60,869 nucleotides of DNA from Candidatus Zambryskibacteria bacterium RIFCSPLOWO2_01_FULL_39_39 (GCA_001823925.1 MHWB01000002.1:1-60869); one strand, 5' to 3'; numbered from the stretch's first letter, positions 996 through 19,537 are shown. Program-made: numbers and translations. The notes: generated by a model from the letters alone, not told the origin.

Positions 996-2324
996 ATGGA
1001 AACAATGCAAATGCCAGGAGGGGCTATGGCAACAAAAGTAGTAGTCCCCATAAAGGTAAAATACTGCCTTTATGCAAGGAAAAGTACCGAATCTGAAGAA
1101 CGGCAAGTATTGTCGATAGATTCGCAGATTAAGGAGATGTTGATTCTGGCAGAAAGAGAGGGGTTAGAAATAGTAGCCATGAAAAGAGAGAGTCACTCGG
1201 CTAAAGAGACTGGGCAAAGGCCAGTGTTTAACGAAATAATTGAGGAAATTAAGATTGGTAAATATAACGGAATACTGACTTGGGCTCCTGATCGTATCAG
1301 CAGGAATGCGGGAGATTTAGGCAGAGTAGTAGATTTGATAGATGCAGGGATTTTAGCTGAAATCCGCACCTTCAGTCAGAAATTCTCAAACAATCCGAAT
1401 GAGAAATTTATGTTGATGATTTTAGGATCGCAAGCAAAACTGGAAAATGATAACCGAGGTGTAAATGTACAAAGAGGACTTCGAACTAGATGTGAGATGG
1501 GATTGAGGCCAGGAACAGCACCGACTGGATACCTAAACCTAAAACAGATGGATAAAAAATGCCAGGTGATAATAGACCCGGATAGAGGTCATGTCATTAC
1601 TCAGATGTTTGAAAAAGTTGGTCACGAGAAATGGTCTGGAAGGAAGGTCTACCACTGGCTCAAATTTGATCTAAACTTTTATACTAGAGGCAATAAACCA
1701 CTGTCCCTAGGAAATGTATACCGTACATTGCAAAATTCCTTCTATTACGGACCATTCGAATTTCCGGTAAAAAGCGGTAAATGGTACCAAGGCAAGCATG
1801 AGCCATTAGTTTCTAAAGAGTTATTCGACAAGGTTCAAGAGCATTTAAAAAGGGATCTCAAACAGCATAACAATCACGAGTTTGCCTTTACCAAGATCAT
1901 AGTTTGCGGCTCCTGCGGATCTTGTATATCAGGCCAGGAAAAATACAAACCATTGAAAGATGGCACTACAGCTAGATACATATATTATGGCTGTGGGAGA
2001 ACTAAGGATCATAACTGTAAGGGCAACAAATATTTGAGAGAGGAGGAACTGGTAAACCAGCTAATACCGTTGATAGACAAAATTGAGTTCAACCAATTCA
2101 GTATGAAGATAAAGTTTGAAGAAGAATTGAGAAGATTTAATAAATTCCAGAGAACCGTACTAGGATCAAATGACCCCAAAGTGAAGCACCAAGATACTGA
2201 TGCCAGAGTTTATGCCAAGTATATTTTGAAGGAGGGTACTAATGAAGAGAGACGAGAAATTATGGGATGTTTTAAATCGAAGCTAAAGATTACGAAAGGG
2301 GTGGTAACATTATCTAATTCATAA
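996..2324 (+). CDS. Large serine recombinase (resolvase N-terminus + recombinase domain + zinc-ribbon-like region)
   Basis: YCLYARKSTESEERQVLSIDSQ, LTWAPDRISRNAGDLG, CGSCGSCISG...YYGC zinc ribbon; true start may be at MATKVVV. Confidence 0.9.
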   Translation: METMQMPGGAMATKVVVPIKVKYCLYARKSTESEERQVLSIDSQIKEMLILAEREGLEIVAMKRESHSAKETGQRPVFNEIIEEIKIGKYNGILTWAPDRISRNAGDLGRVVDLIDAGILAEIRTFSQKFSNNPNEKFMLMILGSQAKLENDNRGVNVQRGLRTRCEMGLRPGTAPTGYLNLKQMDKKCQVIIDPDRGHVITQMFEKVGHEKWSGRKVYHWLKFDLNFYTRGNKPLSLGNVYRTLQNSFYYGPFEFPVKSGKWYQGKHEPLVSKELFDKVQEHLKRDLKQHNNHEFAFTKIIVCGSCGSCISGQEKYKPLKDGTTARYIYYGCGRTKDHNCKGNKYLREEELVNQLIPLIDKIEFNQFSMKIKFEEELRRFNKFQRTVLGSNDPKVKHQDTDARVYAKYILKEGTNEERREIMGCFKSKLKITKGVVTLSNS

Positions 2325-2333
2325 AATAATTAT

Positions 2334-3035
2334 CTACGGTACAAGTATTCGCTCTAATAAAATAAACTCTTTTAATTTTATTAGACCTTTCAAAGTATGT
2401 GGATGACAACGTCGTATATGATCATGTTTCGGACAAGGGCATGGCGTATGACCTTTAATATTAGATCTCTGTAGTAAAAGAGGCTTCACCTTTTTCCACA
2501 AAAGAAACTCTTGAGATATTATTTGTAAACACTCTTTCGCTTTCTCAAGGGTTGGATTTTTAGAGAATGCTTCTAGTGAGCCCACACCACCATGGGCATA
2601 TTCAAACCATGGCCAGTGTCGTTTTTCTGTAAAGAAAAGTTGGCCATAAAGAAACGGTATGACTAGCTCTCGAAAATACCGCTGAAACTGAAACTCTGGT
2701 TGTAGAAACTCATCCTCTTCAAGAGGATTACAGGTGCATCCGCTAGAGTCGGTTTGATTGAAATGTCGATCTGGTACGTTTTCTATTTCATCAACAAATA
2801 GAGCAGGTAGCTTTGAGTGAGAAATGTCGTTTCTTACTTCAATTCGGATTTTGAATCTGCCGTAGAGGCGCACGCCACCAACAGCATCAATTGTATTTTC
2901 TTCAATTTGTAGAAAACGCTCAGTATGTTCGTTGTAGGTGGCAGTGAACTCTATCTCTCCAGATATTTTCTCTGCTTTGACTTCGAACTGTGGGTACTTC
3001 TTTGATAGCCACGCTTTATCTTTTTCTGTCAACAT
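2334..3035 (-). CDS. E2-like (ubiquitin-conjugating fold) CBASS-associated protein with C-terminal Cys/His-rich tail
   Basis: RHFNQTDSSGCTCNP resembles the H-x-N...G-x-C motif of bacterial E2-like proteins; CPCPKHDHIRRCH resembles a SEC-C type zinc motif; overlaps the CD-NTase gene. Confidence 0.6.
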   Translation of the reverse strand: MLTEKDKAWLSKKYPQFEVKAEKISGEIEFTATYNEHTERFLQIEENTIDAVGGVRLYGRFKIRIEVRNDISHSKLPALFVDEIENVPDRHFNQTDSSGCTCNPLEEDEFLQPEFQFQRYFRELVIPFLYGQLFFTEKRHWPWFEYAHGGVGSLEAFSKNPTLEKAKECLQIISQEFLLWKKVKPLLLQRSNIKGHTPCPCPKHDHIRRCHPHTLKGLIKLKEFILLERILVP

Positions 3036-3943
3036 ATAACAGCACAGTGTGGAGAGTGCGGAGTGAACCCAGTATTGGGGTGGCGAGTAGATGGGGATGG
3101 AATCGGAGATATTAATGGAGCATAATATCCTTTATCATCTTCCTCGCGAAATACGACTTGCCAGTCGGCAAGTTCATTAGATTCCCCAATTACATCAAGA
3201 GTTTCTTTTGCTGCCTGGGCTACCATAATTTTTTCAGATGGTTGTACAAGTTGTGACAAAATATTATTTGAGTTCGCTGGATCGACTAGTTGCAATGTGT
3301 CGAATTCATCTCTGAGTGCTTCGAGTACCTGACGGAAAGATTTCATGAGATTTAACTTGTCGCGTGATCCAGTAAGAGCGCGAACAACGAATAACTCTAG
3401 AATGAATGTTTTAATGACAATATTGTTCCGGTACGCCCAGAGTTTTGCAAGCCTTATCACAGACACACACCCGCTGTTGACGATGTGATTTATATGAACT
3501 TTTAGGTTCGTTTGCATACGTTCTTTATCTCCATAAGCCACATGGAGAAATACGTCATCCGTATTTTCAATAAAGCGTCCTGGTACCACGTCGATGTGGT
3601 AACTATTTGGCACGGTAGATCCACGCAAATTTGTTATCCGCTCCGCAGAAGCCTTAGACTGAATAATGTAACTCTTCTTTAAATGAGCTGAGACATCCTC
3701 GCGGATTTCCTTGAGTGAGCGAGTATCAGTATTAGGAAAGTAACAAACAACATCGAGGTCATACTGATCCGCAATCATAGTCCCTTTCTCGCGTGAGCCT
3801 GCGTATTTAATTTTTGGATCGCTTCCAAATTCTAAACGAAGAAAGTCAGTGACTTCTTTCTTATGTGCTTGTAATGTGTTTTCCTGCTCAGCAGACAATT
3901 CCTGTGTCTCGAGCAATTCCTGTAAAAATTCTTCTGATGTCAT
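3029..3943 (-). CDS. CD-NTase (cGAS/DncV-like nucleotidyltransferase) of CBASS
   Basis: GSREKGTMIADQYDLDVV (GS...DxD) plus downstream HIDVVP acidic residue; operon context. Confidence 0.85.
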   Translation of the reverse strand: MTSEEFLQELLETQELSAEQENTLQAHKKEVTDFLRLEFGSDPKIKYAGSREKGTMIADQYDLDVVCYFPNTDTRSLKEIREDVSAHLKKSYIIQSKASAERITNLRGSTVPNSYHIDVVPGRFIENTDDVFLHVAYGDKERMQTNLKVHINHIVNSGCVSVIRLAKLWAYRNNIVIKTFILELFVVRALTGSRDKLNLMKSFRQVLEALRDEFDTLQLVDPANSNNILSQLVQPSEKIMVAQAAKETLDVIGESNELADWQVVFREEDDKGYYAPLISPIPSPSTRHPNTGFTPHSPHCAVIC

Positions 3944-3953
3944 AATATTTTTA

Positions 3954-5102
3954 TTAATTAATTTTTAATGTCTTCCTCCAACCTCCTTGACTTCGACTGA
4001 AGTCATATATATGTATAGCGGGGTCGGCTTTGGGTAAAATCTCCTGCCCACACGCAACCGCAACCGATACAGGTACCGCCGGGAAAAGATGTATGTTTAT
4101 ATTTCCTCCATGCTTCGCTCTAATTTTGGATAATATATTCCGATAGGCCGTCCTGAACCCGCTAAGTTTTTCCCGAGTATCCATAAAAAGTGGTGAAGGA
4201 TTAGCCACTGAGATTTCATAAACGGGAATACTTCTACCAATAATGTTACTTACTTCTGTATGTGCTGGTTTGCCACTAATTGAGAGAATAAGTGCGACAT
4301 CGGTGCTTGCTTCCATATCTGACAAAGCTATGTTGTAAAGAAACGTGTCACTTGAATCCTTCCACTTCCAGCCTGATCCCTCTCTGTGAAGCTGAAATAT
4401 GTCCGTAGGTCTAGTATTTGCTAATGTTTTGCCGAAGTGCATAAGGAGAGGAATAGGCGCGAACGCAAAAACAGAAAGATGTTCTGTATATTCCTGTTCA
4501 TTACCCTTAGGGAGTCTTTGAATTAGGCTAGTTGAGATCTCGTTGGCAATCTTTTCCCATTCGGCCTCTGTTGTAGGCTCGCCCAATATGGTCATGTCTA
4601 TACGCACTCCAGTGAGATCAGTTGGGTATCTAGAATCAAGTGCTGCCAACCACATAGCCTCGTTGAATATCTCAGGTCGTCTTTCTCCAATTGTCGCAAG
4701 AAGCACTACAGGTCTCGTCTTCATATTCGAAGCGATCGATGTCTGTAGCTGAATCTTTTCCTCGTGAATTCTTTTAAACTCCAAAATCTTTTTGACCGTG
4801 TATTCATCATGATGCTCGGGACTGTCTACGAGATAATGGTGATCCCGACAGAGCAAAACAAGGTTGTTAATATCTTTCACAAACTCTCCCGAATCTTCCT
4901 CGTGTCTAGCGCCGCCAGGATTAACTGCCTTGATATGTGCCATCTCGGAAAAGTTACCGCCGCTAAGTGTGAGCTTTTCATGCCACAATTCTTTATTGCA
5001 TCCTGGAAATGCACAACGTGCACCGGAAATTGCCCACAGTCTGAGCTTGATGTCAGGGGGTATGGAACGATTTGTCTTTTTTTTAGTAATTTTCTTTTTC
5101 AT
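3954..5102 (-). CDS. HNH endonuclease-SAVED effector (Cap5-like)
   Basis: CAFPGC...MAHIKAVNPGGARH...NNLVLLCRDHHYLVD HNH core; C-terminal SAVED-like IHLFPAVPVSVAVACGQEILPKADPAIHIYDF. Confidence 0.85.
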   Translation of the reverse strand: MKKKITKKKTNRSIPPDIKLRLWAISGARCAFPGCNKELWHEKLTLSGGNFSEMAHIKAVNPGGARHEEDSGEFVKDINNLVLLCRDHHYLVDSPEHHDEYTVKKILEFKRIHEEKIQLQTSIASNMKTRPVVLLATIGERRPEIFNEAMWLAALDSRYPTDLTGVRIDMTILGEPTTEAEWEKIANEISTSLIQRLPKGNEQEYTEHLSVFAFAPIPLLMHFGKTLANTRPTDIFQLHREGSGWKWKDSSDTFLYNIALSDMEASTDVALILSISGKPAHTEVSNIIGRSIPVYEISVANPSPLFMDTREKLSGFRTAYRNILSKIRAKHGGNINIHLFPAVPVSVAVACGQEILPKADPAIHIYDFSRSQGGWRKTLKIN

Positions 5103-5105
5103 ATA

Positions 5106-5762
5106 TTAAAAGTTTTTGAACGGAATATTTAAATGGGTTAATCGAATTTCAAGAGCTTGTCTGGAAAGACCAAAACGGTCTTCAAACTTCTGGAAGCAGT
5201 CGTTCAGGTTGAAAGGTAAGAGAGTTTGATCTTGGATAAAACTGAGTTCTCTAAGTATGATTTCCACATCTATTTTTGGTGCTAGGAGTGCTCCTGCATA
5301 AACATTAGCCTGCCACTCTCTACGCACATGCGCCATATCTAACTTCTTTATATTTTTTGATGGATCGGAATGCTTCCATCCGTTAATGAATCCATTTTTG
5401 GTAGAGAATAAAGGCCCGTGCAACGAGAGATGTCTGGCTTCATGGGCAACGGTGAATGAAATCCGCCTCTGGTTTGTACAGCTGTCATCGATCACCACCT
5501 GACGTGTCTCTGGCCGAAGAAAACCTAGAGTATCTTCTGCCTCTGAATCCTGCGGAATCGCTTCAAAACTGACGCTGAATCCCCAAAGTTCTTGAATGTA
5601 ATTATCAACATCAAGAAGTGAAGGTGGATTTTTGCCATATTTTTCAGAATATATTTTTCGATACTTTGCCGTGTCGCCCAAAACCTGAGATTCGATCTCT
5701 TCTTTGGTGAGCTGGTATGTGTCAGCCATGGGATTCCAGTTTTTAGCGACTCTTACTTTCAT
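5106..5762 (-). CDS. ImmA/IrrE-family zinc metallopeptidase (CapP-like)
   Basis: FTVAHEARHLSLHG (HExxH); adjacent to HTH gene and upstream of CBASS genes. Confidence 0.85.
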   Translation of the reverse strand: MKVRVAKNWNPMADTYQLTKEEIESQVLGDTAKYRKIYSEKYGKNPPSLLDVDNYIQELWGFSVSFEAIPQDSEAEDTLGFLRPETRQVVIDDSCTNQRRISFTVAHEARHLSLHGPLFSTKNGFINGWKHSDPSKNIKKLDMAHVRREWQANVYAGALLAPKIDVEIILRELSFIQDQTLLPFNLNDCFQKFEDRFGLSRQALEIRLTHLNIPFKNF

Positions 5763-6094
5763 AGTTTTTTCTTCTTAGTCTTTCGGAATAGAAGGGGTTG
5801 CGGTTCAAATGCAATGCCGCTTTTTTGAGCACCAGCAATGATTTCATTCTCGAACCGCTCCTTGAAATATAGTTGGACAAGTTCTTCGTATTCATTTGTG
5901 GAAAGAGAATATCCATTTTTCACTTTTTTTAGGAAGTCTATTGATGGCAGAGCCCCCGCTTCAATTTTGCTAATATAAGCGTAAAAATGCTTTCCAAAAT
6001 GTGGCTCCAACTCTTTGTCTAAGCTTCTGGTACTTCGACCTGGAAAGTGAATTTCTCTTAATGACCTTATTTTATTTTTGAAATTTTCGTTCAT
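5759..6094 (-). CDS. XRE-like HTH transcriptional regulator (CapH-like)
   Basis: 111 aa, HTH-like SLDKELEPHFGKHFYAYISKIEAGALPSIDFLKK; 4-bp overlap with peptidase gene. Confidence 0.75.
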   Translation of the reverse strand: MNENFKNKIRSLREIHFPGRSTRSLDKELEPHFGKHFYAYISKIEAGALPSIDFLKKVKNGYSLSTNEYEELVQLYFKERFENEIIAGAQKSGIAFEPQPLLFRKTKKKKL

Positions 6095-6129: not shown

Positions 6130-6228
6130 CAATAAAGGTCTCGACAAATAATATATTTTATTTTCTATTACTAAATAGTTCGAATCTCGCCACCATCGAC
6201 TTTTTAGAGATTTTTGGACATCAAAAAG

Positions 6229-6281
6229 ATGGCTCAAAATATAGGCCTCGGCATAGTCCGATACTAAAAACTAAAGGCGGA
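6229..6281. repeat. 53-bp direct repeat, copy A
   Basis: atggctcaaaatataggcctcggcatagtccgatactaaaaactaaaggcgga; one mismatch to 9699-9751. Confidence 0.95.
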
Positions 6282-6400
6282 AGCTTGAGTATTTGAACCC
6301 TCAGCATAGCCTCGGCGCTATACGGCCTAAAATATAGTTATTTTTGAAACTCATTTTACTGTAAACAATTTTATTTGCTTTAAGTCTTACAATCTAATAT

Positions 6401-6427
6401 AATCTCCTATACTCATAGTATGAGATT
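6401..6427 (+). promoter_or_regulatory. Imperfect palindromic operator-like site upstream of fic
   Basis: aatctcctatactcatagtatgagatt; contains ctcatagtatgag; upstream TATAAT-like box. Confidence 0.4.
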
Positions 6428-6438
6428 AACCATATTTT

Positions 6439-7494
6439 ATGGACTATAAATTCAACAAAAGATTGGAAGATTTGCCTCAATCAATCTGGCAATTAATAAA
6501 CCAGATTGATGAGATTAAGGGTAGATGGATAGGTGGAGCGGAACTAAATCCACAGGCTTTGGGGCGTCTTAAAAAATCAACACTAGTCACTTCTACCGGC
6601 GCTTCTACTCGTATTGAAGGCGCCAAACTTTCTGACGAAGATGTGGAGAAATTAATGCGTGGTCTTACCATGCAAAAATTTAGAGATAGAGATAAACAAG
6701 AAGTTAAAGGGTACTACGAGCTTCTCAATAATGTTTTTGAGGCATGGAAAAACATTCCATTTTCTGAAAGTACCGTAAAACATTTTCACAGAGAACTTCT
6801 TAAGTACGTAGAAAAAGACGCGTCCCATAGAGGAGAGTATAAAGGAGTAGAGAATAAAGTTCACATGATTGATGAAGCTGGTAATTCTATCGGTATACTT
6901 TTTGATACCACTTCGGCATTTTTGACTCCCAAAGAAATGCTTGAGTTGACAGAATGGGCACAGCAAACTTTGGCCGAAAAAGAAGTTCATCCTTTATTAG
7001 CCATTGGAAACTTTCTAGTTGAGTTTCTTAATATCCACCCATTTCAAGACGGCAATGGGCGGCTTTCCCGTATCCTCACAAATCTTCTTATGCTCAAAAA
7101 TGGCTACCCATACATGCCATATATTTCTCACGAAAAATTAATTGAAGATAATAAAGCTGATTATTATGTAGCTCTGAGAAGAAGTCAAAAAACTATAAAA
7201 ACGGAAAAAGAGGATATTACTCCCTGGTTAGAATTTTTCTTGACTATCTTGCTTGAGCAAGCCAAACAAGCTATTGATCTATTATCTAAAGAAAATATTG
7301 AGCTCATTATTTCTCCAAAACAGCTTGTGGTATGGAAATATCTTGAATCTGTAATAGAGGCTACCCCAGGAGAAATATCAAAAAATACCAAAGTATCCAG
7401 ACCAACAGTCTCCCAAGCACTAGATGTTTTGATGCGTCTCAAAAAGGTGAAAAGAGTTGGACAAGGAAGAACGACGAGATATAGCAAAATATAA
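6439..7494 (+). CDS. Fic/DOC family protein with C-terminal winged HTH
   Basis: HPFQDGNGRLSR Fic motif; C-terminal TPGEISKNTKVSRPTVSQALDVLMRLKKVKRVGQGRTTRYS. Confidence 0.93.
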   Translation: MDYKFNKRLEDLPQSIWQLINQIDEIKGRWIGGAELNPQALGRLKKSTLVTSTGASTRIEGAKLSDEDVEKLMRGLTMQKFRDRDKQEVKGYYELLNNVFEAWKNIPFSESTVKHFHRELLKYVEKDASHRGEYKGVENKVHMIDEAGNSIGILFDTTSAFLTPKEMLELTEWAQQTLAEKEVHPLLAIGNFLVEFLNIHPFQDGNGRLSRILTNLLMLKNGYPYMPYISHEKLIEDNKADYYVALRRSQKTIKTEKEDITPWLEFFLTILLEQAKQAIDLLSKENIELIISPKQLVVWKYLESVIEATPGEISKNTKVSRPTVSQALDVLMRLKKVKRVGQGRTTRYSKI

Positions 7495-7496
7495 AT

Positions 7497-9638
7497 ATGA
7501 TCCAGATCAGTGATGATCAGATAAATTTGTACCTATCCATCTTCAAAGGAAGGAGCGACATCTACGCTAGACACTGGGAGAAAAATGGCAGATCTGGGTA
7601 TAGCCCAGCGTACTCATTTAACTGGGATGAATTTTTAATTCACAAACAGAAGGGTGGAACGATAAATAGCTTTGGGAATAAAAAATTAATCCCACTCACA
7701 AAAGATATTATCAAGAAGCACTTGCTCGGGGTTACTCTTTTGGGTATATACCCAATTCTTGAAGATAACACGTCGTATTTTATTGCCGCCGATTTTGATG
7801 GAGAAAATTGGTTGGAAGATTCAAGAAAGTATATTGATGTTTGTAAAAAGGTGGGGCTAACAACGTATCTAGAAAGATCAAAATCTGGTAACGGAGGTCA
7901 TGTTTGGATTTTTTTTCAAGAAGCATACCCGTGTTACAAAAGTCGAGCTATCGCTACTGAATTAATCAGGCAAGCTTTAGACTTATCAGTCTTTGAAAAA
8001 GAAGTTAGTTTTGATCGGCTCTTCCCAAACCAAGATTCTATACCTCAAGGGGGATTTGGAAATCTCATAGCTTTTCCGCTTCAAGGAAAATATTTAGGAC
8101 AAGGCAATTCTGCTTTTATTGATCCTTATACTGTAAAATTGCACCCCGATCAGTGGGAGTTTTTATCTAAAATTCACAAACATACAACAGAGGAACTCGA
8201 TAAAATATTTTATGAAGTAACTGACAATGAAAAAGTTGTCGTACAAAAAAGAAAATCTGCAGACAGGCTGGTAATAACTGTCGGCAAAAATATACAAATA
8301 CCAAGATCAGAACTTGCTCCTGCGACGGTTACATTTCTCAAAGAAAAACTAAACTTTTTAAGCACTGAATATTTGACCAGGAAAAGATTAGGTAAGTCGG
8401 TATATAAAGTCCAAAAATATTTCAAACTAATCGAAGAATCTGGAGATAATATTTTTCTACCGAGAGGATTCCTGAATCAGCTTACGTCTTTTTTAGAATC
8501 AAACGGCATAAAATATGAGGTCAATTGTGGGTACCCAGAAATGGAAAATGTTAAATTTAAGAGTCTGATTAAGTTAACTCCACACCAAGAAGAAGCTCTG
8601 GAGAAATCCCTTAAACAAACTCAAGGGGTAATAGTAGCCCCGCCAGGAAGTGGTAAAACCATGATTGGTATGGAGCTTATCGCAAAGAGAGAATTACCGG
8701 CTCTGGTACTGGCTCATAGGAAGCAATTACTAGATCAATGGGTAGACAGGATTCAGACATACCTAAACATTCCAAAAATCAAAATCGGTACTTTCTCTGG
8801 TTCCAGAAAGAAAATTGGAAAAGAAATAACTGTCGCCCTGATGCAGAGTTTGGCAAGGTACAAAAATATTGCAGAATTGGAAAATAAATTCGGGACTATC
8901 ATCGTTGATGAATGCCATCATATACCAGCAAAAACTTTTAGAGAAGTTATTGCGAACTTAAATTCCCAATACTTATATGGACTTACCGCTACCCCCAAAA
9001 GAAAGCATAACGATGAGCAACTTATTTATGTCTATATTGGAGATATTATTACAGAAATGGCGGGTGGTAATTTCAGTGAAGAAAACACAGAAAATACCTC
9101 TTCCAATAAACTCAAAGTCGTAATCAAGGAAACCGATTTAGAAATTCCGTTCCAATGGAAAACCGATAGATTTCAGCTTTTGGCTAAAATAATAAGTTTT
9201 GATACTGCTAGAAACAAATTGGTAACTGAAGATATTTTGGAACAAGTTAAAGTGGACAATAAAATCCTTGTTTTAAGCGAAAGGAAAGAGCATTTAGAAA
9301 TTCTCGAACTCTGTCTTAAAGGTAAATGCGAAACGATTGTAATTTCAGGTGACGACTCTGCCTCAAAAAGAACCTCAAAACTCAAGCAAATTAATGACGG
9401 TCATTACAATGTTATATTATCCACCGGTCAGTTTTTTGGAGAGGGGTTAGATATTAAAAATATTTCAACTCTAGTTTTAGCCTTTCCATTCTCATTCGAA
9501 GGGAAGCTGATTCAGTATATTGGAAGGCTACTGCATAGTGCTAACCCTAAATTTGTTTTTGATTACAGAGACAAGAAGATAGCTTTTCTAGAAAGACAGT
9601 TTAAACAGAGAAATAGATACTACAAAAAGTTGATCTAA
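7497..9638 (+). CDS. AEP-like primase domain (resembling TOTE conflict system primases) fused to SF2 helicase
   Basis: N-term YFIAADFDGENW, LERSKSGNGGHVWIFF; helicase APPGSGKT, VDECHH, GLTATPKR, QYIGRLLH. Confidence 0.85.
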   Translation: MIQISDDQINLYLSIFKGRSDIYARHWEKNGRSGYSPAYSFNWDEFLIHKQKGGTINSFGNKKLIPLTKDIIKKHLLGVTLLGIYPILEDNTSYFIAADFDGENWLEDSRKYIDVCKKVGLTTYLERSKSGNGGHVWIFFQEAYPCYKSRAIATELIRQALDLSVFEKEVSFDRLFPNQDSIPQGGFGNLIAFPLQGKYLGQGNSAFIDPYTVKLHPDQWEFLSKIHKHTTEELDKIFYEVTDNEKVVVQKRKSADRLVITVGKNIQIPRSELAPATVTFLKEKLNFLSTEYLTRKRLGKSVYKVQKYFKLIEESGDNIFLPRGFLNQLTSFLESNGIKYEVNCGYPEMENVKFKSLIKLTPHQEEALEKSLKQTQGVIVAPPGSGKTMIGMELIAKRELPALVLAHRKQLLDQWVDRIQTYLNIPKIKIGTFSGSRKKIGKEITVALMQSLARYKNIAELENKFGTIIVDECHHIPAKTFREVIANLNSQYLYGLTATPKRKHNDEQLIYVYIGDIITEMAGGNFSEENTENTSSNKLKVVIKETDLEIPFQWKTDRFQLLAKIISFDTARNKLVTEDILEQVKVDNKILVLSERKEHLEILELCLKGKCETIVISGDDSASKRTSKLKQINDGHYNVILSTGQFFGEGLDIKNISTLVLAFPFSFEGKLIQYIGRLLHSANPKFVFDYRDKKIAFLERQFKQRNRYYKKLI

Positions 9639-9698
9639 AATATTGAGTTTCGAATCCTCTCGCTATTGGTATATGAGATATTTTTACGCACCAAAAAT

Positions 9699-9751
9699 AT
9701 GGCTCAAAATATAGGCCTCGGCATAGTCCGATACTAAAAACTAAGGGCGGA
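9699..9751. repeat. 53-bp direct repeat, copy B, abutting tRNA-Ser 3' end
   Basis: atggctcaaaatataggcctcggcatagtccgatactaaaaactaagggcgga. Confidence 0.95.
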
Positions 9752-9832
9752 GGGTAAGAGATTCGAACTCTTGGTGGGTTGCCCCACACCCGCTTTCCAA
9801 GCGAGCGCACTAGACCGCTATGCGAACCCTCC
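9748..9832 (-). tRNA. tRNA-Ser(GGA)
   Basis: GGAGGGT acceptor pairs ACCCTCC, CTTGGAAAG anticodon loop GGA, long variable arm, GTTCGAATC T-loop, G discriminator. Confidence 0.93.
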
Positions 9833-9953
9833 ATAACACTCAAAATCGTAATTTACTTTACGACATATTAATAATCTAACACTTAATTAAGCTTTTGAAA
9901 AATAGCCTTAAAATGAAAGGTTTAAGTGGTGTTTAGGGATACCTGTTTTTTAG

Positions 9954-14563: not shown

Positions 14564-15730
14564 ATGAAAAAAATATTATATAGCGCAGGATTGATTGTTT
14601 TCGTAGCTGCTTTAGCTCTAGGTGCGACAGGTGCCTTCTTTAGCGACAGCGAAACTTCAACAGGCAACATTCTTACTGCTGGGGCGATTGATTTACAGAT
14701 AGACAATGAAAGTTACGTTACAAGCACAACCACAGGATTATTGGTGGCAAGTCCTAATACAACTTGGACAATGCGTAACTTAACGGTTGAGAAGTTTTTT
14801 GACTTTGAAGATATAAAGCCGGGAGATATTGGCGAGGATACTATATCTCTACACGTAGATAACAATGATGCTTATCTTTGTGCAGATGTAACACTTACAT
14901 CAAACAATGAGAACACTCTTGTTGATCCAGAGTCAGACGATGGAGATGATACAACTGGCACAAATGGAGGTGAGCTTGCACAGCAAGTAAACTTTGCTTG
15001 GTGGGCAGATGATGGGGATAATGTTTTAGAAGAAGGTGAAAATTTATTACCAGGCGGTCCTCTTGGAAACCTTGCAATAGGAGCGACAACAACTGTTACT
15101 CTTGCTGACTCTGTTTCTAACATTTGGACAGGACAAGGTGGTCCAATCCCAGGAGCTTCTACAAGATATATTGGTAAAGCCTGGTGCTTCGGTACGATTA
15201 CACCAGCTCCAGTAGCTCAAGATGGTTCTGGAAATAATGGTGAAAATGGTCCTTTGGATAGAGGTACAGGATTTATTTGTGACGGCTCTCTTGCAAACAA
15301 CACAGCTCAAACAGATAGTTTGACTGCAGACGTTGCATTTAGAGCAGTTCAGTCTAGGAATAATAGTAGATTCTTGTGTACTCCAAGCACAGCTCCTGAA
15401 ACAGCAACAGTAACACTCGACAAAGTTGTTACATTTACAAATCTCGCAGTTGCTGGAGTTGACGTAAGTGACTTCACACTTCACTTGGTCGGCCCTGGTG
15501 GTGACCATGTATTGATTGATCAGGTTCCATTTCCAGGTCTTACTCCAGGAGCATATGTTGTATCTGAGGTTTACTCAGGTGATCCAGCTAATGCAACCTC
15601 TACAGTAATATTTAGTGGTAGTTGTACAGAAATTGGAACTACAGACACAGCAACATTTAATGTAGTTTCTGGTGTAAATCCAACCTGTACAATCACAAAC
15701 TCAGTTTCTACCACAACACCACAGCAGTAA
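14564..15730 (+). CDS. TasA/camelysin-like SipW-dependent secreted protein
   Basis: MKKILYSAGLIVFVAALALGATGAFFSDSETSTGNILTAGAIDLQIDNESY. Confidence 0.88.
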   Translation: MKKILYSAGLIVFVAALALGATGAFFSDSETSTGNILTAGAIDLQIDNESYVTSTTTGLLVASPNTTWTMRNLTVEKFFDFEDIKPGDIGEDTISLHVDNNDAYLCADVTLTSNNENTLVDPESDDGDDTTGTNGGELAQQVNFAWWADDGDNVLEEGENLLPGGPLGNLAIGATTTVTLADSVSNIWTGQGGPIPGASTRYIGKAWCFGTITPAPVAQDGSGNNGENGPLDRGTGFICDGSLANNTAQTDSLTADVAFRAVQSRNNSRFLCTPSTAPETATVTLDKVVTFTNLAVAGVDVSDFTLHLVGPGGDHVLIDQVPFPGLTPGAYVVSEVYSGDPANATSTVIFSGSCTEIGTTDTATFNVVSGVNPTCTITNSVSTTTPQQ

Positions 15731-15746
15731 TTAATTACCTAATTAG

Positions 15747-16979
15747 ATGAAAAAGATATTACTTAGTCTTGGGTCCATACTTTTCGCAGGGGCGATCCTT
15801 GCGGGCGCAACGAGTGCGTTTGTTATGGATACAGAAAAAAGTACTGGTAATACTTTTGCATCCGGAGTTATAGATCTCAAAGTAGATAACGAAAGTTATG
15901 TGACGGACGAGAATGGAAAGTTGGTTTTCAGTCCTTCTACTTCTTGGGACCTCTCGGGACTGTCAGGGAAATTGTTCTTCAATTTCCTTGACATAAAGCC
16001 GGGGGATATCGGAGAAGATACAATAAGTCTCCATGTAAACAACAACAATGCTTGGGCTTGTATGAATATAAATCTTACAAGCACTCCAGAAAATGGAGTA
16101 AACGAGCCAGAGGGGTTGGTAGACAATACAGTCGGCCCAAATCAAGGAGAGTTGCAAGAACATCTTTACTTTGTTTTTTGGGCAGATGATGGAGACAATG
16201 TGTATGAAAAAGGAGAAAAGATATTCAAAAAAGGTTTGTCCAAAGATATATTCAACGGTGAGCCTTGGACACTGACAGATTCAGAGACAAGTATTTGGGC
16301 AGGAAGTTCTGGTTACGCCTATCAAAATGGTAGCTGGAAATACAATAATACTTGCAGAAACGGTGATCCTATACCGGGAGGTTCTACTAAGTTTATAGGC
16401 AAAGCATGGTGCTTTGGAGATATAAACGAGAATCCTCTAAATCAGGATGGTAAAGGCAAAACCCCTTCGAATTCCTCAGGACAAGTGGACAATGGTCCAC
16501 TTGTGAGAGGTACAGGATTTGTCTGCGAAGGCAGTGATGTGGGGAACATCGTACAGAGTGATGGTATTGGATTGGACGTAACATTTACTGCAGTCCAATC
16601 TAGGGGCAATGAGAATTTTGTGTGTGGCGATGAAGACGAAGGAGAAGGCGGTAACGAATATTGCTCTCACGGATACTGGAAGCAAAAGCAACACTTTGAT
16701 AGTTGGGTAGGCTTCGGCCCTAATCAACAGTTCTCTTCTGTTTTTGAAAATGCTTTTCCAGGAAAGACCTTGTTGCAAGTATTGCAACTTGGAGGGGGAG
16801 GGCTAAATAGGCTCGGAAGAGAGACAGTGGGTGCACTCCTTAATGCGGGTTCCGTAGACTTCCCTCTTACCCAAGCTGAAGTTGTGAGTATGTTTAATAC
16901 AACATACCCAGGCTCTCTAGACTCTTATGACACACTAACAGAAATGTTTGCTCTACCTGAAAGTTGTCCATTAAATTAA
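15747..16979 (+). CDS. TasA/camelysin-like SipW-dependent secreted protein with C-terminal CSHGYWK domain
   Basis: LAGATSAFVMDTEKSTGNTFASGVIDLKVDNESY; YCSHGYWKQKQHFDSW. Confidence 0.85.
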   Translation: MKKILLSLGSILFAGAILAGATSAFVMDTEKSTGNTFASGVIDLKVDNESYVTDENGKLVFSPSTSWDLSGLSGKLFFNFLDIKPGDIGEDTISLHVNNNNAWACMNINLTSTPENGVNEPEGLVDNTVGPNQGELQEHLYFVFWADDGDNVYEKGEKIFKKGLSKDIFNGEPWTLTDSETSIWAGSSGYAYQNGSWKYNNTCRNGDPIPGGSTKFIGKAWCFGDINENPLNQDGKGKTPSNSSGQVDNGPLVRGTGFVCEGSDVGNIVQSDGIGLDVTFTAVQSRGNENFVCGDEDEGEGGNEYCSHGYWKQKQHFDSWVGFGPNQQFSSVFENAFPGKTLLQVLQLGGGGLNRLGRETVGALLNAGSVDFPLTQAEVVSMFNTTYPGSLDSYDTLTEMFALPESCPLN

Positions 16980-17002
16980 AAAATTAATTCCCCGGAAATT
17001 AA

Positions 17003-18373
17003 ATGAAAAAAATATTATTAAGCTCATTTCTAATACTCTTTGCTGTATCCAGCCTTGTGCTCGGAGGTACTGGCGCATTCTTCTCTGACACCGAAACCTC
17101 AAGTGGAAACACCTTTACTGCGGGAGCAATAGATTTGAAAATAGATAACACGAGTTATTACAACGGAGTGTTGAACCAAGGTACTACGTGGTCTCTCACC
17201 GATCTTACGGACCATCTCTTTTTTGACTTTGACGATCTAAAGCCGGGTGACATTGGAGAAGATACGATCTCAATACATGTAGACAATAATGATGCATATG
17301 TATGTGCAGAAGTTACTCTCACAAGTAATGAGGAGAATGGTATCAACAACCCAGAAGCAGAGGATCAAGATATAACAGAAGGCCCAGGAGAAGGTGAGCT
17401 CGCTCAAAATGTAAACTTTATTTGGTGGGCGGACGATGGCGACAATGTTCTTGAGGGTGATGAGAATATAATCTCACAAGGTCCTATAGGTAATTTGCCT
17501 CTAAACCAGCCATACACAGTTGCTCTTGCTGATTCAGGGAGCAATATATGGACTGGTATCGGTGGTCCTGTAGCAGGGAGTGATACAAAGTATATTGGCA
17601 AAGGTTGGTGCTTTGGAAATCTTTCCGTCACGCCAGTTGTGCAAGATGGAGCCATAGTTGACACAAATCCTGCAGATGGCATACCGGATAATGGCCCAGA
17701 TGCGCGAGGCGCGGGGTTTAGCTGTGATGGATCTCTTTTGGACAACACTACCCAAACAGACCTACTCACTGCTGATATAAAATTTAGCGCAGTACAATCA
17801 AGACATAACCAGGATTTCCTTTGTGTACCAGATAAACCTCCAGTTGCTTGCGAGTTGACAGAGACTTATGCCGATGAAGTCGCCTCTAGCGATCAAGGTT
17901 TGCGCAAGAACAATACTGCAGTAACCGCAGATAGGAGTGATACTTCTTATGCTCTAGGAGCTCCGCAGAGCTCGGGTACTCCTTATGATGCTCCAGTTGT
18001 AGCAAATTCCTTCTTCTCGCTCGGATTTCCTCTTCTTGGAAACATGGCGGAGATAATACTTTCATTCAATGACAACTTTGTTGTAGATGGTCCGGGGAAC
18101 GATCTAAAACTTTGGGAGGTGACTGGGGGTACAAGCTATCCGGATGAAAAAGTAGATGTATATGTTGGGGATTCAACTGTTGGTCCGTGGACACAGGTAG
18201 GCGATGATGTAACCCGAGACGCAGAGATAGATCTATTTTTGGCTGGGGTGAGTCAAGCTCGCTATGTGCGCATAGTAGATGCAAGCAACCTTGCTTTATT
18301 TGAGGCTACTGCCGATGGTTACGACCTAGATGCCGTGCAAGCTCTAAATTGTATTCAGAGAGCAGAAGAATAA
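17003..18373 (+). CDS. TasA/camelysin-like SipW-dependent secreted protein with extra C-terminal domain
   Basis: LGGTGAFFSDTETSSGNTFTAGAIDLKIDNTSY. Confidence 0.87.
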   Translation: MKKILLSSFLILFAVSSLVLGGTGAFFSDTETSSGNTFTAGAIDLKIDNTSYYNGVLNQGTTWSLTDLTDHLFFDFDDLKPGDIGEDTISIHVDNNDAYVCAEVTLTSNEENGINNPEAEDQDITEGPGEGELAQNVNFIWWADDGDNVLEGDENIISQGPIGNLPLNQPYTVALADSGSNIWTGIGGPVAGSDTKYIGKGWCFGNLSVTPVVQDGAIVDTNPADGIPDNGPDARGAGFSCDGSLLDNTTQTDLLTADIKFSAVQSRHNQDFLCVPDKPPVACELTETYADEVASSDQGLRKNNTAVTADRSDTSYALGAPQSSGTPYDAPVVANSFFSLGFPLLGNMAEIILSFNDNFVVDGPGNDLKLWEVTGGTSYPDEKVDVYVGDSTVGPWTQVGDDVTRDAEIDLFLAGVSQARYVRIVDASNLALFEATADGYDLDAVQALNCIQRAEE

Positions 18374-18412
18374 TTCTAAGATTCTGCAAATTCCATAGTT
18401 TCGCAAAATTAG

Positions 18413-19537
18413 ATGAAAAAGTTATTCAAAATCCCATACTATTTTCTTGTTGTAGGAGTTGCTTCCATAGGTTTACTTTTGCTTGCAACTCTTTTACCAA
18501 TACCCGGCAACTTGAGAGTAAAGATTGTAAAGTCGGGTTCTATGGAACCAGCCATAAAGACTGGAGGACTTGTCTTCATAAGAGAAGCTTCTAGTTACAA
18601 AATGGGAGATGTAATAACATTCGGGCAAGATACCAAGACCCAGATCCCAACTACCCACAGGATTATAGAAGAAAGTGGGGAGGGTGCTTCAAAAACATTT
18701 ACTACCATGGGAGATGCCAATGATGCTCCAGATCCCAAGGAAGTAGGAGTAGGGGAGATAAGGGGTAAAGTAATATTTTCGCTTCCTTATGCTGGGTACA
18801 TACTAGATTTTGCAAAGAAGCCTATGGGGTTTCTGCTACTTGTGGGTGTGCCAGCTCTTATTATTATCTTTGAGGAGTTAATAAAAATTTGGAAAGAAAT
18901 AAAAAAAATAAGAAGAAGAAAAAATGAGGAAGCCCTAGAGTATGTTTCAAGTGAGGCTTTACCAATAGAATTGGAAAGAAATGTTCAATCAGTGTATAGA
19001 GAAGGTAATGTGCTAGATTTGCGGGCTAAATTTGAACAAAAATCTAGAGAGGGTTTGTCTTTCAGGAGAAGAGACACTTCAGACTTTGGACTCAAAGTTG
19101 TGAGTATTCTTCTCTTGGCCATAGTCCCTCTCCTCGGTTTCGGTAGTGTGGGTAGTACTGTTTCTTACTACAACGAAAGCGAAGTCTCTCTCGGTAATAT
19201 TTTGCAAGCGGGTAGTAATTATAAAAATTTTACAGAGAATAATCTGAGGGTGAATAATGATGAAGAGGTTGTACTTGGAGTTTCTGTTGAGACCTCTCTC
19301 TCTGAAGTTTCGGAAGATCTAGCACCTAGTGAGGTAGAAGAAAATAAAATTGAGGAAGAATCAGAAGAACAGGTTGTAGAAGAGAGTGAAGAAGTCGTAG
19401 AAGAAGAACTAAATGAAGAAAATACTAACACAGAAGTAGAATTAGAAGACACCGAAGATGAAAACGTAACAGAAAGTAATGCAGTAGAGGAAGAACAAGA
19501 AATAGTGGAGCCGACTCCGGTAACAATTTCAGAATAG
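18413..19537 (+). CDS. sipW: SipW-like signal peptidase I with C-terminal substrate-like motif and acidic tail
   Basis: VKSGSMEPAIKTGGLVFI, THRIIE, MGDANDAPDPKEV; C-term VGSTVSYYNESEVSLGNILQAGS and Glu-rich tail. Confidence 0.87.
   Translation: MKKLFKIPYYFLVVGVASIGLLLLATLLPIPGNLRVKIVKSGSMEPAIKTGGLVFIREASSYKMGDVITFGQDTKTQIPTTHRIIEESGEGASKTFTTMGDANDAPDPKEVGVGEIRGKVIFSLPYAGYILDFAKKPMGFLLLVGVPALIIIFEELIKIWKEIKKIRRRKNEEALEYVSSEALPIELERNVQSVYREGNVLDLRAKFEQKSREGLSFRRRDTSDFGLKVVSILLLAIVPLLGFGSVGSTVSYYNESEVSLGNILQAGSNYKNFTENNLRVNNDEEVVLGVSVETSLSEVSEDLAPSEVEENKIEEESEEQVVEESEEVVEEELNEENTNTEVELEDTEDENVTESNAVEEEQEIVEPTPVTISE

What the first reader, a model, noticed from the sequence alone, without database searches (positions are those of the whole stretch)
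6401..9638. Two-gene Fic + AEP-primase/SF2-helicase cassette
Fic-wHTH (HPFQDGNGR) and a 713-aa AEP-like primase/SF2 helicase fusion are separated by 2 nt and so probably co-expressed. The N-terminal domain resembles the primase domain of TOTE conflict systems. Pairing it with a Fic AMPylase-type protein, with no obvious nuclease domain, and placing the pair next to CBASS suggests a compact, possibly undescribed defence or conflict module.
Basis: partly seen in the sequence, partly recalled or inferred. Interest (0 to 1): 0.75.

Follow-up and report, generated by a model that had tools for sequence, protein, structure and literature searches.

The report
Mobile toxin–helicase cassette beside a tRNA
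In a tiny-genome bacterium, a Fic (AMP-attaching) protein and a DNA primase–helicase form a two-gene unit that appears to have inserted as a mobile cassette behind a tRNA gene; close relatives of the helicase sit behind many different toxin and defence genes, so it looks like a portable DNA-processing part that teams up with interchangeable killer genes.

Summary
In detail: a Fic-wHTH gene (6439-7494) is followed after 2 nt by a 713-aa AEP-TOTE primase/XPB-like helicase (7497-9638), with no nuclease domain. The pair recurs: 20 of 40 distinct helicase loci, nearly all Patescibacteria, have a Fic gene directly upstream, from several Fic subfamilies, with at least 8 changes on the helicase tree. 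In other loci closely related helicases follow AbiE, PIN or restriction genes, and in other phyla HigBA, TniBQ or Tn3 genes. DNA homology then begins within about 15 nt of the helicase ATG. The two genes lie between direct repeats that run into the 3' end of tRNA-Ser (6206-6281 and 9676-9751). Such repeats bracket the same kind of unit at tRNA-Ser, -Met, -Trp, -Arg and -His in other genomes, with no integrase inside. A sister species carries a different unit at the same tRNA. CBASS belongs to the neighbouring block beside a serine recombinase; in two related islands that place holds a restriction system or an OLD nuclease. Best reading: a non-autonomous tRNA-anchored cassette, with a self-regulated Fic as toxin or defence cargo and the AEP-helicase as DNA processor. 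Defence function, AMPylation target and recombinase remain unshown.

The parts
6206..6281 (.). left direct repeat (76 nt, 91% identical to 9676-9751): downstream sequence of tRNA-Ser plus about 7 nt of its 3' end; distal att-like copy with degenerate tRNA remnant to 6301
   Evidence: only two copies in the 800-kb genome
6375..6403 (+). sigma70-like promoter TTGCTT-17-TATAAT for the Fic operon
   Evidence: read in the sequence
6391..6427 (+). putative operator AATC-N6-AATC...GATT overlapping the -10; the AATC-N6-AATC repeat is in 11/11 helicase-linked wHTH-Fic promoters (0.4 expected)
6439..7494 (+). Fic-wHTH protein, 351 aa: HPFQDGNGR catalytic motif, STRIEG motif like the class II inhibitory helix, C-terminal winged helix
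7497..9638 (+). AEP-TOTE primase (aa 8-237) fused to XPB-like SF2 helicase (aa about 358-690), 713 aa
9676..9751 (.). right direct repeat, ends 7 nt inside the tRNA-Ser 3' end
9745..9833 (-). tRNA-Ser(GGA), 3' end facing the cassette; the likely integration target
   Evidence: the same tRNA carries another direct-repeat-bounded unit in sister species G004
996..2324 (+). large serine recombinase (nearest NCBIfam model CcrB, below its cut-off) at the far end of the island; 58-66% identical ones lie in two other Fic-helicase islands; candidate recombinase, not shown
2334..5102 (-). type II-short CBASS (E2, cyclase, HNH-SAVED effector): neighbouring cargo block, outside the direct repeats
5106..6094 (-). 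CapP-like M78 peptidase and small HTH protein, regulators on the CBASS side, outside the direct repeats
   Evidence: the HTH protein has no family hit and is read as CapH-like from its position only

Best explanation
The Fic and AEP-helicase genes form one 3.47-kb mobile cassette inserted behind the 3' end of tRNA-Ser(GGA). It carries att-like direct repeats and no integrase, so it is moved by a recombinase acting from outside, perhaps the serine recombinase of the same island (inferred). The Fic protein is cargo: a self-inhibited AMP-transferase whose winged helix binds an operator over its own promoter and represses the operon (operator shown as conserved DNA, binding inferred). When de-repressed or activated it modifies a host target and stops growth, which either addicts the cell to the cassette or aborts infection (inferred). 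The AEP-helicase is a DNA processor that unwinds and primes DNA, either the cassette's own during moving or repair, or incoming foreign DNA. It is a portable gene that recombines behind many different toxin or defence genes.
For: Direct repeats bracket exactly Fic + helicase in the window (spacing 3470), L008 (3724, tRNA-Met), L082 (3476, tRNA-Trp), L114 (3526, tRNA-His), L086 (3827, tRNA-Ser) and L078 (tRNA-Arg). A tRNA lies within 600 nt downstream in 12 of 45 loci, all 12 with the 3' end facing the cassette (about 4% per locus expected). Sister species G004 has an XRE + 436-aa unit between copies of the same repeat at the same tRNA-Ser. Three islands share the order recombinase, defence cargo, repeat, Fic, helicase, tRNA. 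The helicase has swapped partners, with a sharp DNA border near its ATG. Both genes are under purifying selection, dN/dS 0.04-0.09 in unsaturated pairs. Operator repeat in 11/11 promoters. Helicase broken but Fic intact in G130, G274 and G145, so the helicase is not an obligate antitoxin. Absent from 7 congeners.
Against: No excised form, no clean empty site in a close strain, and no integrase in the unit; the recombinase is a guess. Repeats of the size seen are more typical of tyrosine integrases than of serine recombinases. About half of the helicase loci show no clear repeats (some from age or contig ends). Loci are draft metagenome assemblies. Fic toxicity and AEP-helicase activity are inferred from families only.
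Confidence: 0.6

Rival explanations
1. Two-component anti-invader system: the AEP-helicase senses or processes foreign DNA and switches on Fic, which AMPylates a host target and aborts infection. Fic, AbiEii, PIN, HigB and Doc would be exchangeable effectors for one sensor.
For: The constant helicase pairs with different toxin families and with R-M; Fic pairing kept although Fic and helicase have been reshuffled (window/G274 Fic 82% but helicase about 41%; L008/L012 helicase 87%, Fic 63%); the islands are rich in defence genes; a Thermus element PrimPol limits uptake of foreign DNA and is not needed for element replication (PMC7693054).
Against: Most related Fic genes occur without the helicase; in other phyla the helicase also sits with TniBQ or Tn3 genes that are not effectors; no interference assay exists.
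Confidence: 0.3
2. The AEP-helicase is the replication or establishment module of the mobile unit, like the SCCmec primase-helicase, and Fic is only an addiction gene.
For: Sits in Tn3, Tni and satellite-like elements and in tRNA-bounded cassettes; copies covering at least 80% of the query in 90 plasmids but in none of 50,697 phages; SCCmec precedent (PMC7581432).
Against: Neighbouring repeat-bounded units lack the helicase (PIN unit of L009, PemK unit of L020, XRE unit of G004), so it is not needed in cis; PrimPol was dispensable for ICETh2 replication. No origin-like element was sought.
Confidence: 0.35
3. The helicase is the antitoxin or obligatory regulator of Fic.
For: Translational-coupling distance, down to a 4-nt overlap in L011.
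Against: Intact Fic next to broken helicases (G130, G274, G145) and many solo Fic genes.
Confidence: 0.04
4. Chance adjacency in a gene-dense genome.
For: None beyond the short intergenic distances of small genomes.
Against: 20 of 40 loci with Fic upstream against 3 Fic genes in the genome, and at least 8 changes of the label on the tree.
Confidence: 0.01

Closest known systems
TOTE conflict system AEP proteins (PF22548; RefSeq name in E. coli)
   Same: Same AEP domain and same AEP + SF2 helicase order across the full length, about 30-33% identical in Proteobacteria.
   Different: Compact 713 aa; coupled to Fic; tRNA-anchored. The published definition of TOTE was not found in the library.
CRISPR-associated Prim-Pol, CAPP-Helicase type (PMC8211822)
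   Same: Prim-Pol followed by helicase; nearest solved AEP fold is Marinitoga CAPP.
   Different: No Cas1-Cas2 next to it here; Fic instead.
SoFic / PDC-S04 Fic single-gene defence (PADLOC)
   Same: Fic with C-terminal wHTH, E=4e-43.
   Different: Far below the SoFic equivalog cut-off (52 against 550 bits); paired with a helicase.
Thermus ICETh2 PrimPol-Hel element (PMC7693054)
   Same: PrimPol + helicase in an element bounded by a repeat of a tRNA 3' end, TA genes in some strains.
   Different: Carries its own tyrosine integrase, 11 kb, separate PrimPol and Hel genes of another helicase type.
Integrase-less att-flanked elements (CIMEs) and SCC cassettes
   Same: att-flanked units without a recombinase, tandem accretion at one site; SCC has serine recombinases and a primase-helicase (PMC7581432; CIME from memory).
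   Different: tRNA target instead of rlmH; unrelated primase; recombinase link unproven.

Membership tests
TOTE/AEP-SF2 helicase family | PF22548 AEP domain over its curated cut-off | tested here: met
   266 bits against 27
TOTE/AEP-SF2 helicase family | catalytic motifs of AEP and SF2 helicase | tested here: met
   DFD, SGNGGH, GSGKT, DECH, TATP conserved; second Arg of motif VI degenerate in this branch
TOTE conflict system as a whole | the partner genes that define the published system | not testable with these tools
   defining paper not in the library
SoFic (NF046030 equivalog) | score above the equivalog cut-off | tested here: not met
   52 against 550 bits
Fic AMP-transferases | HxFx(D/E)GNGRxxR motif | tested here: met
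   HPFQDGNGRLSR
Fic AMP-transferases | AMPylation activity and target | not testable with these tools
   needs biochemistry
tRNA-anchored integrative element (CIME-like) | direct repeats including a tRNA 3' end at both borders | tested here: met
   window and at least 5 other loci at 5 tRNA types
tRNA-anchored integrative element (CIME-like) | different cargo at the same att site in a relative | tested here: met
   G004, 2960-nt XRE + 436-aa unit
tRNA-anchored integrative element (CIME-like) | excision or transfer | not testable with these tools
   no reads, no strain
SCC cassette | CcrA/B/C recombinase over cut-off; insertion in rlmH | tested here: not met
   CcrB 111 against 900 bits; site is a tRNA
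CAPP (CRISPR adaptation primase) | neighbouring Cas1-Cas2 | tested here: not met
   no cas gene among the island proteins scanned; rest of the genome not tested
Type II toxin-antitoxin (Phd-Doc) | small antitoxin next to Fic/Doc | tested here: not met
   no small antitoxin gene; Fic carries its own inhibitory-type motif and wHTH

The most novel reading that the evidence does not exclude
Patescibacteria carry an undescribed class of integrase-less, tRNA-3'-end-bounded cassettes, sometimes in tandem arrays, in which one portable AEP-helicase acts as a common DNA sensor or processor for interchangeable toxins and defence genes (Fic, AbiE, PIN, R-M). It would be a modular immune and addiction system assembled cassette by cassette, in the spirit of an integron.
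Probability: 0.3. Interest if true: 0.8.

Novelty: new variant of a known kind. Interest (0 to 1): 0.62.

Why it matters
The AEP-TOTE helicase family is widespread (about 10% of complete E. coli genomes) yet no experiment on its function turned up in the papers searched. Its exchange of partners, and the sharply bounded two-gene units at tRNA ends, give concrete hypotheses: shared sensor with swappable toxins, or element replication module. They also give a minimal 3.5-kb construct to test. The finding would also show how very small genomes of Patescibacteria collect defence genes.

Tried and rejected
Chance adjacency: rejected. Helicase as antitoxin: rejected because Fic stays intact beside broken helicases. 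Phage or prophage origin: no match covering 80% of the query in 50,697 phage records, none in the IMG/VR scan. CBASS accessory: rejected, because CBASS lies outside the repeats and is replaced by R-M or OLD in related islands. Weak repeats (L017, L122, L128, about 36 bits) were not counted because 5-10% of within-genome controls reach about 35 bits; one control reached 106 bits, and I suspect, but did not check, that it comes from the tandem paralogous genes at 14-18 kb. My first operator pattern used the wrong spacing and found nothing; corrected. Searches for the definition of TOTE and for papers on such cassettes found nothing. An exact empty site was sought in sister species: four have the tRNA-Ser without a second repeat copy, but flanking genes are too rearranged for a base-exact junction.

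Full report
CHECK. The window is the start of contig C2 of an 800-kb, 13-contig Patescibacteria-type genome (assignment from the relatives found). Two same-strand genes, 6439-7494 (351 aa) and 7497-9638 (713 aa), are separated by 2 nt. The first is a Fic protein (PF02661 E=1.4e-14; PADLOC SoFic E=4e-43) with an intact HPFQDGNGR motif, an STRIEG stretch that fits the class II inhibitory motif (S/T)xxxE(G/N), and a C-terminal winged helix. The second has AEP-TOTE (PF22548, E=3.3e-79) and SF2 helicase domains. By sequence and fold the AEP domain is closest to CRISPR-associated Prim-Pol of Marinitoga (7nqd; TM 0.83 by target length) and the helicase to XPB (model pLDDT 83). Catalytic motifs of both domains are conserved. 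There is no nuclease domain.

RECURRENCE. A scan of one genome for each of 84,980 species found 30 relatives, and whole-genome searches of Patescibacteria relatives found more: 21 of 397 genomes in the order, 8 of 384 in the class draw, 15 of 380 in the phylum draw. Of 40 distinct helicase loci with a readable 5' side, 20 have a Fic gene directly upstream on the same strand, almost always within 35 nt and as close as a 4-nt overlap. The genome has 3 Fic genes, so chance is excluded; the binomial figures ignore relatedness, but at least 8 changes of the label on the helicase tree support repeated associations (quick tree). Several Fic kinds occur: wHTH-C, XRE-N and other subfamilies. The converse is weaker: only 10 of 33 related Fic loci in the order have the helicase. 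In G130, G274 and G145 the helicase is broken while Fic is intact, so the helicase is not an obligate antitoxin. Both genes evolve under strong purifying selection, dN/dS 0.04-0.09 where dS could be estimated (several dS values exceed 1 and are rough).

PARTNER SWAPPING. In other loci the helicase follows AbiEii (L004), a TdeIII R-M pair (L005), PIN toxins (L020, L030) or Vsr/Dcm (L119). In other phyla it follows AbiEi-AbiEii (Aliarcobacter plasmid), HigBA (Acinetobacter), a Doc gene (an alphaproteobacterium), TniBQ (Sphingobium, Agrobacterium) or a Tn3 resolvase (E. albertii, Pantoea). L004, L005, L006, L074 and L114 have 75-86% identical helicase DNA, yet where the partners differ homology starts within about 15 nt of the helicase ATG. 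Fic and helicase identities are discordant: window against G274, Fic 82% and helicase about 41%; L008 against L012, helicase 87% and Fic 63%. The helicase is thus a portable gene, and its pairing with Fic is re-made or kept through reshuffling.

THE FRAME. Direct repeats 6206-6281 and 9676-9751 (91% over 76 nt; the only two copies in the genome) bracket exactly the two genes. The right copy runs into the 3' end of tRNA-Ser(GGA), 9745-9833 minus. The same layout is found at tRNA-Met (L008), tRNA-Trp (L082), tRNA-His (L114), tRNA-Ser(GCT) (L086, four copies) and tRNA-Arg (L078), with spacings of about 3.5-3.8 kb. Controls: the best of 150 mismatched flank pairs was 33.7 bits; within the window 5% of control positions reach 36.5 bits or more, with one of 106 bits that probably reflects tandem paralogous genes. 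The repeats counted score 43.7-159 bits and end in tRNA sequence. Over all loci, 12 of 45 have a tRNA within 600 nt downstream, all 12 convergent, against about 3.5% expected per locus. Sister species G004 carries the same repeat twice at the same tRNA-Ser, around an XRE + 436-aa unit (2960 nt). Seven congeners lack the helicase. In candidate Saccharibacteria-like loci the repeats form arrays with PIN, PemK or Fic units (L009, L020, L030). No unit holds an integrase.

THE ISLAND. The window (CBASS), G016 (type II R-M) and G274 (OLD nuclease and an ABC-transporter unit) share one order: serine recombinase, defence cargo, repeat, Fic, helicase, repeat/tRNA; the recombinases are 58-66% identical. 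So CBASS is the cargo of the neighbouring block and not a partner of the pair. The serine recombinase is a candidate for moving the units, but this is inference.

REGULATION. A promoter TTGCTT-17-TATAAT precedes Fic. AATC-N6-AATC, usually followed by GATT, overlaps the -10 in the window and is present in 11 of 11 helicase-linked wHTH-Fic promoters (0.4 expected) and in 12 of 21 solo Fic promoters (0.74 expected). XRE-Fic loci instead have two AACTTTATAAAGTT palindromes. The operator therefore follows the Fic type, which suggests autoregulation by the HTH of Fic.

MECHANISM. Shown: gene structure, motif conservation, recurrence, swapping, repeats, operator conservation. Inferred: Fic is a self-inhibited, self-repressed AMP-transferase that harms the cell when released; the AEP-helicase unwinds and primes DNA of the element or of invaders. 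Precedents pull both ways. In Thermus ICETh2 a PrimPol in a tRNA-bounded element limits uptake of foreign DNA and is dispensable for element replication (PMC7693054), whereas SCCmec carries a primase-helicase replication module (PMC7581432). I put 0.6 on the cassette explanation as a whole, and similar weights on the two rival jobs of the helicase; the rivals overlap with the main reading and do not exclude it.

NOVELTY. The AEP-helicase family is known by name (TOTE; CAPP-Helicase) and common in E. coli (521 of 5,426 genomes). The coupling to Fic and the tRNA-anchored two-gene units were not found in the papers searched. I file it as a new variant of a known kind.

Noticed in passing
L009 4188-8721, L020 3577-8209, L030 2730-6537: Arrays of direct repeats carrying tRNA-Met 3'-end sequence separate small TA units (antitoxin + PIN; PemK/MazF; Fic + BrnT/BrnA-like, the last read by eye) and helicase units: integron-like cassette arrays without an integrase in the unit.
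   Followed up: partly
L191 8978-12019 (G004, same genus): A 2960-nt unit with a 72-aa XRE regulator and a 436-aa protein with no Pfam or PADLOC hit sits between repeats at the same tRNA-Ser(GGA); possible unknown toxin or defence gene.
   Followed up: partly
window 2334-6094: Type II-short CBASS (E2 only, cyclase, HNH-SAVED) with a CapP-like peptidase and a small HTH protein, in a tiny Patescibacteria genome.
   Followed up: no
L058, L148 (Tn3-like); L136, L147 (TniBQ): The AEP-helicase lies between resolvase and transposase genes of Tn3-type elements and right behind TniB-TniQ, as if it were part of transposition modules.
   Followed up: no
L139, L140, L141 (E. coli): In E. coli (O157:H7 and others) the family member follows AlpA/HTH, YfjI/DUF3987 and inovirus-type Gp2 genes, a satellite-like block; 521 of 5,426 genomes have it.
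   Followed up: no
G000:C8:33997-37916 (L202, L066): One of the genome's two tyrosine recombinases lies about 3 kb from another Fic gene; could mark a second Fic island.
   Followed up: no
window 7497-9638, helicase motif VI: The second arginine of QxxGRxxR is lost or shifted in most of the Patescibacteria branch (GRLLH, GRLMH, GRLRD/G) but kept in proteobacterial relatives.
   Followed up: no
window 14564-19537: Tandem camelysin/TasA-like secreted proteins followed by a signal-peptidase-like protein (read by eye).
   Followed up: no
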